Below, piece by piece: positions 48,700 through 53,600 of a stretch of 64,000 bases of DNA. Both the position numbers and the translations under genes were made by a program. The notes beneath the pieces were generated by a model. It did no database searches. It had not been told where the DNA came from and was given only the letters and a program-made list of their open reading frames with translations. Origin of the DNA: Pseudomonas sp. N3-W (lineage in GTDB: Bacteria > Pseudomonadota > Gammaproteobacteria > Pseudomonadales > Pseudomonadaceae); NCBI RefSeq assembly GCF_024970185.1, contig NZ_CP103965.1:1918001-1982000 (forward strand). The letters are read 5' to 3'. Positions within the stretch are counted from its first letter, which is position 1, and each line of letters opens with the position of its first letter.

Positions 48700-49047
48700 A
48701 TGAGCACAGCCTATCAAGAAGACATCAGCACCAGCGTGCTGCGCCGCATGAAAGAGGGCGGTTTCGATTTTTCCCGATTCCATCCCATCGAGTTCTACGC
48801 CATTTTCCCGGACGAGGAGCGGGCCCGCAGGGCGGCAGGTCATTACCGTTACCGTGGTGAATCATTGAATGCGCAAATCAGTGTGCGCGACGACGGCGCA
48901 TGGGCGCTCGAACTGAGCAAGGTCATGTACGCGACCTACGATGACATTGGCGATTTCGAGCAGGGTTTCGAGGCGGTGGTCGAGCCTCTGGGCGGCATCA
49001 TTGAAGGATGGGGCGTCAAGCAGGAGGTACGCGGGTTACTCGCCTAA
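48700..49047 (+). CDS. RraB-like regulator of RNase E
   Basis: A 115-residue protein of the RraB family (ribonuclease E inhibitor, PF06877). HPIEFYAIFPDEERARRAAG, then ISVRDDGAWALELSK and the C-terminal DFEQGFEAVVEPLGGIIEGW follow the family layout. RraB binds RNase E and changes which transcripts the degradosome cuts. TGAGGGGGA precedes the ATG. It is monocistronic, ended by a good terminator. Confidence 0.83.
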   Translation: MSTAYQEDISTSVLRRMKEGGFDFSRFHPIEFYAIFPDEERARRAAGHYRYRGESLNAQISVRDDGAWALELSKVMYATYDDIGDFEQGFEAVVEPLGGIIEGWGVKQEVRGLLA

Positions 49048-49066
49048 CGCTTCTGTAACACTCGGC

Positions 49067-49095
49067 AACGGCTGACCCATGGGTTGGCCGTTTTT
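49067..49095 (+). terminator. Terminator of rraB
   Basis: Stem AACGGCTGACCC with GGGTTGGCCGTT (two G-T pairs) and five T residues, 20 bases after the stop codon. Confidence 0.85.
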
Positions 49096-49144
49096 GTTGG
49101 TGGGTTTTAGAAAGGTCTTTTGATTCATAACGTTTCAAAAACCC

Positions 49145-49168
49145 AAAAAAAACCGCCTGAGCAGGCGG
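49145..49168 (-). terminator. Orphan minus-strand terminator
   Basis: Stem CCGCCT-GAGC-AGGCGG followed on the minus strand by eight T residues. No minus-strand gene ends here, so it may finish a small RNA that starts in the divergent region near 49340. Confidence 0.75.
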
Positions 49169-49313
49169 CCAAAGGGAAGTTCGAGAGGTTTTTCAGCAGA
49201 TGCGCCGATTATCCGCATCGCCGCCCGGGCAGTGAAATCAACTCTGACTATGCTGGTGATAGGCGCCACCATGCGTCGCAATGAAGCGGGGGCGATCAGG
49301 CTGGGGCATTTGC

Positions 49314-49330
49314 TGCACAGGATTGGTGCG
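49314..49330. promoter_or_regulatory. NtrC-type binding site
   Basis: TGCACAGGATTGGTGCG fits the classical dyad TGCAC-N7-GTGC seen before glnA. It is centred about 86 bases upstream of the predicted start of the ATP-grasp operon. Confidence 0.7.
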
Positions 49331-49350
49331 AAGGAACGCGGGCAATTATC

Positions 49351-49363
49351 CAACTGATTGATA
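49351..49363 (-). promoter_or_regulatory. IHF consensus site
   Basis: Minus strand TATCAATCAGTTG matches WATCAA-N4-TTR exactly. It lies between the NtrC-type dyad and the -24 element, where IHF bends DNA to bring the activator to sigma-54 polymerase. Confidence 0.65.
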
Positions 49364-49381
49364 TAAAAGCGTTTATGCCGA

Positions 49382-49396
49382 TGGCACGGGCCTTGC
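49382..49396 (+). promoter_or_regulatory. Sigma-54 promoter of the ATP-grasp/alpha-E/transglutaminase operon
   Basis: TGGCAC-GGGCC-TTGC is a perfect match to the -24 and -12 cores with correct spacing. The transcript should start near 49408, 23 bases before the start codon, and includes the AAGGAG ribosome-binding site. Confidence 0.8.
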
Positions 49397-49430
49397 GAAG
49401 CCTAGATGTCCGGGTGACAAGGAGTACGGC

Positions 49431-50840
49431 ATGATCCGCACCTATTTTGATGAGATGTACGATGCCGGTGGCCATGTCCGCCCGCATTATCGGGAGTTTG
49501 CCCGTTGGCTGGCCGAAACGCCTGACGAGCTTTTGGCACAACGGCGACGCGAGGCCGATCTGCTGTTCCATCGTGCCGGGATTACCTTCACACTTTATGG
49601 TGATGAGCAGGGGACAGAGCGCCTGATTCCTTTCGACACCATTCCCCGCAGCATCCCCGCCAGCGAATGGCGGATCGTCGAACGTGGCTGCATCCAGCGG
49701 GTCAAGGCGTTGAACATGTTCCTCGCCGACCTTTATCACGAGCAGCGCATCATCAAGGCCGGCATCATTCCGGCCGAGCAGGTGCTGGCCAACGAGCAAT
49801 ACCAGTTGGCGATGCAAGGGCTGGATCTGCACCGCGATATCTATTCGCACATTTCCGGCGTCGATCTGGTGCGCGATGGCGACGGCACGTACTACGTGCT
49901 TGAAGACAACCTGCGTACCCCCAGCGGCGTGAGCTACATGCTCGAAGACCGCAAGATGATGATGCGCCTGTTCCCCGAGTTGTTCGCCGCGCAGCGCATA
50001 GCCCCTATCGACCATTACCCGAACCTGTTACTCGACACCCTGAAAAGCTCCAGCCCGATCGACAACCCGAGCGTGGTAGTACTGACGCCGGGTCGCTTCA
50101 ACAGCGCGTTTTTCGAGCATGCGTTTCTGGCGCGTGAAATGGGCGTGGAACTGGTGGAAGGCGCGGACTTGTTCGTGCGCGACGACAAGGTGTTCATGCG
50201 CACCACAGACGGGCCGAAAGCCGTTGATGTGATCTACCGTCGCCTGGACGATGCGTTCCTTGATCCGCTGGCCTTCAACCCGGACTCGATGCTGGGCGTG
50301 CCCGGGCTGTTGTCGTCCTATCGCTCCGGCAACGTGGTGCTGGCCAATGCCATTGGCACCGGCGTTGCGGACGACAAGTCGGTGTACCCGTTCGTGACGG
50401 ACATGATCCGTTTTTACCTGGATGAAGAACCGATCCTGAAGAATGTGCCGACGTGGCAGTGTCGTAATCCCTCTGAACTGTCCCACGTGCTGGCCCACCT
50501 TCCAGAGCTGGTGGTCAAGGAAACCCAGGGCTCAGGCGGTTACGGAATGCTGGTGGGGCCGGCGGCGACGGCAGCGGAAATCGAGTCGTTCCGCGCACGA
50601 ATCAAAGCCAAGCCCCACGCGTATATCGCGCAACCGACGCTGTCGCTGTCGACCTGTCCGACCTTTGTCGAGAACGGTATTGCGCCACGCCACATCGACC
50701 TGCGTCCGTTTGTATTGTCTGGCCGCGAAACCCGGGTTGTGCCCGGCGGTTTAACCCGTGTAGCCCTGCGCGAAGGCTCTCTGGTGGTGAACTCATCCCA
50801 GGGCGGCGGAACCAAGGACACCTGGGTGGTCGAGGATTGA
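49431..50840 (+). CDS. Circularly permuted ATP-grasp protein
   Basis: A 469-residue member of the circularly permuted ATP-grasp type 2 family, predicted carboxylate-amine ligases. Segments typical of the family are YYVLEDNLRTPSGVSYMLE near residue 155, VVKETQGSGGYGMLVGP near 365 and PRHIDLRPFVLSG near 425. The substrate is unknown; family analyses propose peptide-like or amino acid ligation. First gene of a three-gene operon with the alpha-E and transglutaminase genes, under a predicted NtrC/sigma-54 promoter. Confidence 0.9.
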   Translation: MIRTYFDEMYDAGGHVRPHYREFARWLAETPDELLAQRRREADLLFHRAGITFTLYGDEQGTERLIPFDTIPRSIPASEWRIVERGCIQRVKALNMFLADLYHEQRIIKAGIIPAEQVLANEQYQLAMQGLDLHRDIYSHISGVDLVRDGDGTYYVLEDNLRTPSGVSYMLEDRKMMMRLFPELFAAQRIAPIDHYPNLLLDTLKSSSPIDNPSVVVLTPGRFNSAFFEHAFLAREMGVELVEGADLFVRDDKVFMRTTDGPKAVDVIYRRLDDAFLDPLAFNPDSMLGVPGLLSSYRSGNVVLANAIGTGVADDKSVYPFVTDMIRFYLDEEPILKNVPTWQCRNPSELSHVLAHLPELVVKETQGSGGYGMLVGPAATAAEIESFRARIKAKPHAYIAQPTLSLSTCPTFVENGIAPRHIDLRPFVLSGRETRVVPGGLTRVALREGSLVVNSSQGGGTKDTWVVED

Positions 50841-50852
50841 AGGAAGCTTGCC

Positions 50853-51803
50853 ATGCTAAGTAGAACTGCCTCGGATTTGTATTGGATGTCGCGTTACCTG
50901 GAGCGGGCGGAAAACCTCGCACGGATGCTCGACGTCAGTTATTCGCTGTCGCTGATGCCGCAAGACGGTCGTGGTGACGGTCTGCACGAACTGGCCATGC
51001 CGTTGCTGATTACCGGCACGCTGGATGATTATCTGGAGCGCCACGGCGAGTTGCATGCCGAACGGCTGCTGCATTTTTTTGCCCTGGATGCGGCCAACCC
51101 GGCGAGCATCTACAGCTGCCTGGGTTCGGCGCGGGCCAGTGCCCATGCAGTTCGTGGGCGAATCACCGCCGACATGTGGGAAAACATCAACGCCACCTGG
51201 CTGGAAATTCGCGGCATTGCCGAACAGGGCCTGAGTCGCTACGGCATGAGCCGTTTCTGCGAGTGGATCAAGGAGCGTTCGCACCTGTTTCGCGGCGCGT
51301 CCTACGGCACCATCATGCGTAACGATGCGTTCCGCTTCATTCGTCTGGGCACCTTTATCGAAAGGGCGGACAACACCTTGCGCCTGCTCGATGCCCGCTA
51401 CGAAATGGCCGGCGATCAGGCCGAAGCGGTCAGCGACGGCACGGCGCACGCGTATTACCAGTGGAGTGCACTGCTGCGCGCCTTGTCTTCGTTCGAGGCC
51501 TACACCGAGATTTACCGCGATGCGCCCGGTGCCCGGCATGTCGCCGAATTGCTGTTGTTGCGCGCCGACGTCCCGCGTTCCCTGCGGGCCTGTACCGAAG
51601 AAATCGACCAGATCCTCGCCAGCCTGCCGGGGGCCAATGGCCGTCCGGCGCAGCGTCTGGCGGCGGAAATGGACGCACGCCTGCGCTACACCGGCATCAA
51701 CGAAATTCTCGACGAAGGCCTGCACGCCTGGCTGACCGAGTTCATCCCGCTGGTGCGCCAGCTGGGCAACGCCATTCACAGTTCCTACCTGGAGGCTGCA
51801 TGA
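50853..51803 (+). CDS. Alpha-E domain protein
   Basis: A 316-residue all-helical protein of the alpha-E family, which is almost always encoded beside this type of ATP-grasp. It begins MLSRTASDLYWMSRYLERAE, and a second conserved segment is FIRLGTFIERADNTLRLLDARY. The biochemical role is unknown; it may be the partner or substrate-recognition subunit of the ligase. It starts 12 bases after the ATP-grasp stop and overlaps the transglutaminase start by four bases. Confidence 0.9.
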   Translation: MLSRTASDLYWMSRYLERAENLARMLDVSYSLSLMPQDGRGDGLHELAMPLLITGTLDDYLERHGELHAERLLHFFALDAANPASIYSCLGSARASAHAVRGRITADMWENINATWLEIRGIAEQGLSRYGMSRFCEWIKERSHLFRGASYGTIMRNDAFRFIRLGTFIERADNTLRLLDARYEMAGDQAEAVSDGTAHAYYQWSALLRALSSFEAYTEIYRDAPGARHVAELLLLRADVPRSLRACTEEIDQILASLPGANGRPAQRLAAEMDARLRYTGINEILDEGLHAWLTEFIPLVRQLGNAIHSSYLEAA

Positions 51804-52609
51804 GACTTTCCATTAGCCACGAAACCACCTATCACTACGAAGATCAGGTGCGGGCGAGCATCCAGTATCTGCGGCTGACCCCCCACGACAGCGAGCGCCA
51901 GCATGTGCTCAGTTGGCAGCTCGACCTGCCGCGCCCGGTGCGTGCACAACTCGATCCGTTCGGCAACATCCTGCATGTGCTGACCATGGACGAACCCCAT
52001 GAAGCGATCATCATCGGCGCCCGTGGCCAGGTCGATATCGACGAGTTGTCCGAGGCCGAACATGAAAGCCAGTCGGCGTTGCCGTTCCTGCGCTTTACGC
52101 GTCTGACCGAACCGGACGAAGCCTTGCGCGCGTTCGCGGAAAAGGAATGCAAAAAGCGCCGGGATCGCACGGCGCTGATTGATTTGATGCACGGCTTGAA
52201 CTCGCACATGACCTACACGCCGGGCTCCACCGAAGTGGACACCAGCGCCGCCCAGGCTTTTGCCGGACGTTCCGGTGTATGCCAGGACCACGCCCATGCG
52301 TTTCTCGCCTGCGCTCGCAGCCTGGGGATTCCGGCGCGGTATGTGTCGGGGTATTTGTATAGCGAGAACAGCGAGCATCTGGCCAGTCATGCCTGGGCGG
52401 AAGCCTGGCTGGATGACGCCTGGTACAGCTTCGATGTCACCAACGAACTGGCCCGACCCGAGCGCCACCTGAAGCTGGCAGTGGGCCTGGATTATCTGGA
52501 CGCCTGCCCGGTACGCGGCATGCGCCGGGGCGGTGGCAGTGAGCAGATGCATGCAAAGGTGTTCGTGTCGCCGATGCCTGCTCCGGTGATCTCGGTGCAA
52601 CAGCAGTAA
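51800..52609 (+). CDS. Transglutaminase-like cysteine protease-fold protein
   Basis: A 269-residue protein with an N-terminal beta domain (RLSISHETTYHYEDQVRAS) and a transglutaminase-like core. The catalytic triad is visible: Cys in GRSGVCQDHAHAF, His in ASHAWAEAW and Asp in SFDVTN. Bacterial members are thought to be peptidases or amide hydrolases. Here it could cut or recycle the product of the ATP-grasp ligase (inference). No Anbu proteasome-like gene, often found with this set, lies next to it. Confidence 0.9.
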   Translation: MRLSISHETTYHYEDQVRASIQYLRLTPHDSERQHVLSWQLDLPRPVRAQLDPFGNILHVLTMDEPHEAIIIGARGQVDIDELSEAEHESQSALPFLRFTRLTEPDEALRAFAEKECKKRRDRTALIDLMHGLNSHMTYTPGSTEVDTSAAQAFAGRSGVCQDHAHAFLACARSLGIPARYVSGYLYSENSEHLASHAWAEAWLDDAWYSFDVTNELARPERHLKLAVGLDYLDACPVRGMRRGGGSEQMHAKVFVSPMPAPVISVQQQ

Positions 52610-52621
52610 TCCGGGACACCG

Positions 52622-52715
52622 CTTCGTGAGCAGGCTCGCTCCCACATTGGGTCTTCATTGAACACAGGGTGTGTGTTCGACACCGAACCAATGTGGAAGC
52701 GGGCTTGCTCGCGAA
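52622..52715. repeat. REP pair and decayed copy
   Basis: TGAGCAGGCTCGCTCCCACA and an inverted GGAAGCGGGCTTGCTCGCG unit after the transglutaminase gene. A further fragment, ATCGCGAGCAGGGGCA, is at about 52758-52773. Confidence 0.82.
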
Positions 52716-52778
52716 AGCGGTATGTCAGTAAAAGCTGTACTGACTGAAAAGACGCCATCGCGAGCAGGGGCATTGTGG

Positions 52779-53600
52779 TCAGGGCTTAACTTTGCGCCCT
52801 GCCATATGCTTCAAATACCCCACCAGCATCTCCAGATCCCCATCCGGCAAGACCACCGCTGAAAACCCCGGCATCTTGGCCTGCGGCCACTGGCGCAAAC
52901 TCTGCGGGTCGCGAATGTAGCGCCTGAGGAAATCGGCCCCAAAGTACTCGGTCGGGTTATACGGGATATTCAAATCCGGCCCGAACTGCGCATCGCCCGC
53001 ACCATTGAGTCGATGGCACGCCAGGCAGTTTTTCTGAAATAACGCGAAGCCTTTGTTGATCGGATCGTCCCCCCTCAGGGCCGGGTCCGGCAGCAGCGCA
53101 GGAAAGCGTTCCGCCACCGGCGCCAGACGCTTGATGCTGGCAACTTCGAACGGCCATTGTTCAGGGCTGATATGGCCGGCCTGCGGATCGGTCCACACCA
53201 GGTAGAACGGCCCGGCACTGGGCTTGCCCTGCGACAGTGGCGGCCATGGGTTGGCCGGGTCCTCAATCGCCAGCCAGGCGCGAGCGCCCTTGGCATCAAG
53301 CAACGGCGCGGCCGACAACTCCGCCGCAAAACCGTCCAGTGCCACGGCCTGCAGGTGATCATCAGGCTTGATGCCCGTCAGCAACGCCGCCAATGGCACG
53401 GCGCGATAGCTCATGTCCCGTTTGTAGGAAACGTCGTCAGTGATGGTGATGGTCTGTACCAGAGGATGCTTGAGCAGCTCCTCGGTCTGCCAGGTGCGGC
53501 TGTTCGCGCCCAGCTCCAGGTTGAGCTGTGCGGCATGGAGGGGCATGCCGAACAGCAGGGCCCCAAGCACAATGAGCGTTTTCAAATGATCGCCGTCCAT
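52779..53600 (-). CDS. Periplasmic c-type cytochrome protein
   Basis: A 273-residue exported protein. A signal peptide (to LHA) is followed by a region of about 140 residues that resembles an oxidoreductase molybdopterin-type fold without cofactor Cys (YRAVPLAALLTGI), then a cytochrome c domain with haem motif CLACH near residue 192 and an axial Met in QAKMPGFSAVVL. It probably transfers electrons in the periplasm; partners are unknown. It is read leftwards, convergent with the transglutaminase operon. Confidence 0.83.
   Translation of the reverse strand: MDGDHLKTLIVLGALLFGMPLHAAQLNLELGANSRTWQTEELLKHPLVQTITITDDVSYKRDMSYRAVPLAALLTGIKPDDHLQAVALDGFAAELSAAPLLDAKGARAWLAIEDPANPWPPLSQGKPSAGPFYLVWTDPQAGHISPEQWPFEVASIKRLAPVAERFPALLPDPALRGDDPINKGFALFQKNCLACHRLNGAGDAQFGPDLNIPYNPTEYFGADFLRRYIRDPQSLRQWPQAKMPGFSAVVLPDGDLEMLVGYLKHMAGRKVKP

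What the first reader, a model, noticed from the sequence alone, without database searches (positions are those of the whole stretch)
49314..49396. NtrC site, IHF site and sigma-54 promoter in front of the ATP-grasp/alpha-E/transglutaminase operon
Three independent consensus elements stand in the textbook order and spacing: TGCAC-N7-GTGC centred near -86, a perfect WATCAA-N4-TTR site between, and TGGCAC-N5-TTGC at -24/-12. The leader is 23 bases. This predicts that an enzyme set of unknown product is switched on by nitrogen limitation.
Basis: partly seen in the sequence, partly recalled or inferred. Interest (0 to 1): 0.72.

Follow-up and report, generated by a model that had tools for sequence, protein, structure and literature searches.

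The report
Nitrogen-starvation promoter of Anbu-less operon
A Pseudomonas DNA switch that very probably turns on a three-gene enzyme set when nitrogen runs short is strongly conserved among related Pseudomonas species, even where the proteasome-like fourth gene after which such operons are named is missing.

Summary
Each alone is near chance level; the combination occurs once in the genome, and conservation is decisive. In 80 of 80 named Pseudomonas orthologues the sigma-54 site stands 49-52 nt before the ATG and the best NtrC-like site lies exactly 68 nt upstream of it, while the DNA between the NtrC and IHF sites is not conserved. Of 110 in-genus loci examined, 75 carry this promoter; they form one group on an ATP-grasp tree. 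The 'enzyme set of unknown product' is the core of the known Anbu operon (ATP-grasp, alpha-E, transglutaminase). Nitrogen-limitation induction is reported for it in P. putida, and NtrC/sigma-54 dependence for a similar cluster in Burkholderia, so the regulation is of a known kind. The new point is that this genome has no Anbu: Anbu was found in 17 of 149 genus genomes and in 6 of the 75 loci with this promoter, so promoter and trio persist without it. Against the reading: one P. putida study saw induction persist in an rpoN mutant. A conserved divergent sRNA candidate next door is a separate element.

The parts
49314..49329 (+). NtrC-type enhancer site TGCACAGGATTGGTGC, dyad centre about -86
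   Evidence: Exact match. At offset 68 from sigma-54 in 80 of 80 named orthologues and in 74 of 75 in-genus loci with this promoter, score 8 of 10 or better.
49351..49363 (-). IHF-type site TATCAATCAGTTG
   Evidence: Exact WATCAA-N4-TTR. 9 of 9 consensus positions in 39 and 8 of 9 in 41 of 80 named orthologues at the same offset.
49382..49396 (+). sigma-54 promoter -24/-12, TGGCACGGGCCTTGC
   Evidence: 11 of 11 consensus positions. 79 of 80 named orthologues score 11, one 10.
49408..49430 (+). predicted transcription start (49408) and 23-nt leader with AGGAG at 49420-49424
   Evidence: Position inferred from the -12 element; sequence read; not measured.
49431..50840 (+). circularly permuted ATP-grasp enzyme, 469 aa
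   Evidence: PF14403 and PF04174; solved relative 3n6x.
50853..51803 (+). alpha-E protein, 316 aa
   Evidence: PF04168; no solved relative by sequence.
51800..52609 (+). transglutaminase-like enzyme, 269 aa, start overlapping the alpha-E stop (ATGA)
   Evidence: PF08379 and PF01841 (on a longer frame); Cys, His and Asp aligned with 3isr.

Best explanation
This is a genuine NtrC-activated, IHF-assisted sigma-54 promoter for an ATP-grasp / alpha-E / transglutaminase operon, the core of the Anbu operon without Anbu. Under nitrogen limitation NtrB phosphorylates NtrC; NtrC~P binds near -86; IHF bends the DNA between; the activator contacts RNA polymerase-sigma-54 at -24/-12 and drives transcription from about 49408 through three tightly packed genes (12-bp gap, then a 4-bp ATGA overlap). 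Shown here: the elements, their joint uniqueness in the genome, their conserved sequence and spacing, and the absence of a detectable Anbu. Inferred: NtrC and IHF binding, the transcript start and the nitrogen response in this organism. Least certain is what the trio makes. The likeliest role, following published proposals, is ATP-driven amide-bond formation by the ATP-grasp protein (with alpha-E) whose product or substrate the transglutaminase-like enzyme processes, serving nitrogen economy in starvation, with Anbu an optional later step.
For: Unique combination in the genome, 1 match against 0 in the control. Conservation: sigma-54 1.00, NtrC 0.85, IHF 0.81, spacer 0.39. The single best NtrC-like site is at offset 68 in 80 of 80 named and 73 of 75 in-genus loci, while the ATG distance varies 49-52 nt. 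On the tree the promoter needs one change. One ntrC over the family cut-off and one rpoN in the genome. CGCACTATATTGGTGC upstream of ntrB resembles the operon site. Related operons: induced in nitrogen-limited P. putida; a Burkholderia cluster of DUF404/407, DUF403 and transglutaminase genes is NtrC- and sigma-54-dependent.
Against: PMC7801951 lists PP_2686-2688 induced 14- to 20-fold in an rpoN mutant, as in wild type (11- to 15-fold). Known targets are poor controls: neither glnA nor glnK has an NtrC 16-mer of 8 of 10 or better by my score. Only one NtrC dyad is recognisable. The sigma-54 pattern alone is not enriched in the genome. No expression data exist for this strain.
Confidence: 0.85

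Rival explanations
1. The sigma-54 promoter is real, but the -86 dyad is read by another enhancer-binding protein, so the inducing signal is not nitrogen limitation through NtrC.
For: The ntrC family model matches many regulators in this genome, though only one over its cut-off. Loci of other clades mostly have sigma-54-like sites without the NtrC site.
Against: The dyad is the NtrC consensus (recalled), resembles a site before ntrB, and related clusters respond to nitrogen or NtrC.
Confidence: 0.09
2. The operon is induced by nitrogen limitation mainly through a sigma-54-independent route, and the sigma-54 promoter is secondary.
For: P. putida PP_2686-2688 are as strongly induced in an rpoN mutant as in wild type.
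Against: urtA behaves the same way in that table (12.7 wild type, 11.12 rpoN), so the result may concern the whole data set. I could not decide to which clade the P. putida copy belongs. Every position of GG and GC is invariant in 155 of 155 regions.
Confidence: 0.04
3. The elements are a chance coincidence of short consensus matches.
For: Each pattern alone is about as frequent as in shuffled or reversed controls.
Against: Joint uniqueness and selective conservation with fixed spacing over 155 upstream regions.
Confidence: 0.02

Closest known systems
Anbu operon of Pseudomonas putida (PP_2685-PP_2688) and of other proteobacteria
   Same: ATP-grasp, alpha-E and transglutaminase genes together; nitrogen-limitation induction reported for PP_2685-2688 (PMC7801951 and PMC5666114, both citing others; PMC3325844).
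   Different: No Anbu in this operon or, by search, in this genome. The P. putida copy's promoter could not be compared.
Burkholderia cenocepacia I35_5080-5083
   Same: DUF404/407 (ATP-grasp), DUF403 (alpha-E) and transglutaminase genes lowered in an ntrC mutant and named common NtrC/sigma-54 targets (PMC5491218).
   Different: It includes a large transglutaminase-domain protein that this operon lacks; that gene resembles this genome's second cluster (L235), which has no sigma-54 site of 10 of 11 or better.
Textbook NtrC/sigma-54 promoters (glnA type, recalled)
   Same: Upstream NtrC dyad and a -24/-12 element.
   Different: One recognisable dyad at about -86 with an IHF-type site between, instead of paired distant sites (recalled).

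Membership tests
sigma-54 promoter | -24 GG and -12 GC with correct spacing, near consensus | tested here: met
   11 of 11 in the window; GG and GC invariant in 155 of 155 regions.
sigma-54 promoter | transcription start 12 nt after the -12 C and dependence on RpoN | not testable with these tools
   No expression data for this strain; a P. putida rpoN data set disagrees for the related operon.
NtrC-activated promoter | NtrC dyad upstream at conserved distance | tested here: met
   GCAC-N7-GTGC; best site at offset 68 in 80 of 80 named orthologues.
NtrC-activated promoter | loss of nitrogen induction in an ntrC mutant | not testable with these tools
   Only published for a related Burkholderia cluster.
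IHF-assisted promoter | IHF consensus between enhancer and promoter, conserved | tested here: met
   Perfect in the window; 8 or 9 of 9 in 80 of 80 named orthologues. Binding not shown.
Anbu operon | ATP-grasp, alpha-E and transglutaminase genes in this order | tested here: met
   the trio is present in 80 of 80 named loci.
Anbu operon | Anbu gene | tested here: not met
   No match in G000 with a genus Anbu query. The only PF00227 match is a 187-aa frame elsewhere, read as HslV by its size; Anbu itself scores over that cut-off. So this is the core of such an operon, not a complete one.

The most novel reading that the evidence does not exclude
The ATP-grasp/alpha-E/transglutaminase trio is a self-sufficient nitrogen-starvation module and Anbu a dispensable accessory: promoter and trio were inherited together while Anbu came and went. 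Function should then be sought in the trio's product under nitrogen limitation, not in Anbu's proteolysis; paralogous copies with other sigma-54-like promoters would serve other signals.
Probability: 0.5. Interest if true: 0.58.

Novelty: new member of a known kind. Interest (0 to 1): 0.42.

Why it matters
Anbu is discussed as a possible ancestor of the proteasome, and what its operon does is not settled (PMC5666114, PMC6376114, passages). That the nitrogen-starvation promoter and the other three genes persist where Anbu is missing tells experimenters which genes to test and when: delete the trio in an Anbu-less laboratory Pseudomonas and look for a product under nitrogen limitation. It also offers an easily tested promoter with a fixed 68-nt enhancer spacing.

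Full report
What is there. The window lies in a one-contig genome of 6.67 Mb. Its nearest relatives by the ATP-grasp protein are named Pseudomonas, several labelled P. fluorescens. The intergenic region 49048-49430 lies between rraB (48700-49047, PF06877) and three genes: ATP-grasp (49431-50840), alpha-E (50853-51803) and transglutaminase-like (51800-52609), followed by a cytochrome c gene on the other strand (52779-53600).

More than chance? Singly, no. The exact NtrC pattern has 1 match in the window against 1.36 expected, the IHF pattern 2 against 0.88, the exact sigma-54 pattern 2 against 0.36, one of them inside the ATP-grasp gene. Genome-wide the sigma-54 pattern has 16 matches against 21 for its reversed control. 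Jointly, yes: the combined pattern, written after seeing the site, occurs once in the genome and 0 times in the control.

Conservation, named genomes. Mean identity to the window is 1.00 for the sigma-54 site, 0.94 for the stretch between IHF and sigma-54, 0.88 for the leader, 0.85 for NtrC, 0.81 for IHF and 0.39 for the NtrC-IHF spacer. In 80 of 80 the single best NtrC-like 16-mer at offsets 20-179 is the one at offset 68, scoring 9 (59 loci) or 10 (21 loci) of 10; away from it 0.008% of 12,240 positions score 8 or more. A first, stricter regular expression found the sigma-54 site in 79 of 80; the other, L071, has TGGCGC.

Conservation, genus genomes. 126 of 149 have the ATP-grasp protein. 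I examined 110 loci: 30 delivered by that search, the window's own among them, and 80 fetched by choice; not every listed match. 75 of 110 have a sigma-54 site 48-54 nt before the ATG. Of these 75, 74 score 8 or more at offset 68 and 73 have their single best NtrC-like site there; the exception is L170. Of the 35 others, L181 was lost only because its match lacked the first 70 residues; it shows the same 68-nt pair. Over the 80 plus 75 regions (species may recur between the sets) the ATG distance is 49-52 nt and GG and GC are invariant.

Phylogeny and Anbu. On a FastTree of 109 of the 110 loci plus two outgroup rows (38 of 100 inner branches under 80% support) the promoter needs one change and Anbu at least six. 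Clade 1 (75 rows, with the window) has the promoter in all and Anbu in 6; all 6 of those have the same promoter with the NtrC site. Clade 2 (19) has Anbu in 10. Clade 3 (14) has neither Anbu nor a transglutaminase hit. L141 stands alone. The loci of clades 2 and 3 show sigma-54-like sites of a relaxed pattern at other distances, 19 of 19 at -68 to -358 and 14 of 14 at -188 to -210; no chance expectation was computed for these. NtrC-like 16-mers of 8 of 10 occur in 5 of 19 and 10 of 14 of them, but not at a fixed place before the sigma-54-like site; in clade 3 the ten lie at -20, downstream of it, and in L171 one lies 73 nt before its site. Anbu matches in 17 of 149 genus genomes and not in this one. 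The query is an Anbu: it matches 5lox, which PMC5666114 gives as P. aeruginosa Anbu. So promoter and trio persist while Anbu was lost, or gained, repeatedly. Loss is the simpler reading; this tree does not prove it.

Regulators. One ntrC match exceeds its family cut-off and one rpoN. Upstream of ntrB lies CGCACTATATTGGTGC, close to the operon site, and before glnA TGGCATGCAATTTGC. But neither glnA nor glnK has an NtrC 16-mer of 8 of 10 or better, so this is only a partial positive control.

Literature. PMC5666114 (passages) describes Anbu with these partners, says expression is unchanged in several conditions, and cites up-regulation in nitrogen-limited P. putida. PMC7801951 (discussion and passages) lists PP_2686-2688 induced 11- to 15-fold in wild type, 17- to 37-fold in relA/spoT and 14- to 20-fold in rpoN, and PP_2685 at 1.12, 4.81 and 1.45. 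PMC3325844 (passages) lists PP2685-2687 with positive changes in both its columns. PMC5491218 (passages) gives I35_5080-5083 changes of -8.2, -9.4, -9.4 and -6.0 in its ntrC table and names the cluster a common NtrC and sigma-54 target. PMC6376114 (passages) reports phosphate release from ATP by the Y. bercovieri operon's ATP-grasp protein, no Anbu peptidase activity, and an unconfirmed role. The rpoN result is the main contrary evidence; urtA in the same table is equally rpoN-independent (12.7 against 11.12), so it may concern the whole data set. I could not resolve it.

Neighbouring element. A 170-base stretch 49143-49312 matches in 79 of 149 genus genomes. Its core, 49230-49262, and a minus-strand terminator (49170-49151 plus T-run) recur in G002, which has no ATP-grasp match, and in G061, whose copy lies elsewhere: there rraB is followed by this stretch and then directly by the cytochrome c gene, with none of the trio between. 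With a promoter-like TTCACT-17-GATAAT (1 found, 0.4 in shuffles) this looks like a divergent sRNA of about 58-152 nt in the 85 sequences that my pattern could cut out, with CUUCCCUUU before the terminator. It is not part of the NtrC promoter.

Function. The ATP-grasp protein has a solved relative, 3n6x. The transglutaminase keeps Cys, His and Asp in alignment with 3isr. Alpha-E has no solved relative by sequence and its helical model gave no informative match. Amide-bond formation plus processing by the transglutaminase-like enzyme is inference from these families and from the proposals in the Anbu papers.

Verdict. The prediction is sound and strongly conserved; nitrogen control of this gene set is a known kind. 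The added point is that promoter and trio persist without Anbu.

Noticed in passing
window 49143-49262, minus strand: Candidate divergent sRNA: conserved block 49230-49262, promoter-like TTCACT-17-GATAAT (49236-49208) and intrinsic terminator (49170-49151 plus T-run); no Rfam family.
   Followed up: partly
L239 (G002) and L240 (G061): Empty sites: rraB, the conserved block, then the cytochrome c gene, with none of the three operon genes between.
   Followed up: yes
L125-L131, L133, L135-L140 (clade 3) and 19 clade-2 loci: Paralogous ATP-grasp/alpha-E loci with sigma-54-like sites at other distances and without the fixed NtrC site; clade 3 shows no transglutaminase hit.
   Followed up: partly
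L235 (G000:C1:638000-657000): A second cluster in the same genome: 1091-aa frame, fused ATP-grasp/alpha-E frame (835 aa) and a 296-aa frame; no sigma-54 site of 10 of 11 or better in 19 kb.
   Followed up: partly
L241 (G317, another family of the class): ATP-grasp, alpha-E and Anbu genes with TGGCACGTCGCTTGC and TGCACCGAAAGTGTGC 88 nt before it: nitrogen-type control may reach beyond the genus.
   Followed up: partly
window 52610-52775: REP-like inverted repeats (label recalled) between the transglutaminase gene and the cytochrome c gene.
   Followed up: no
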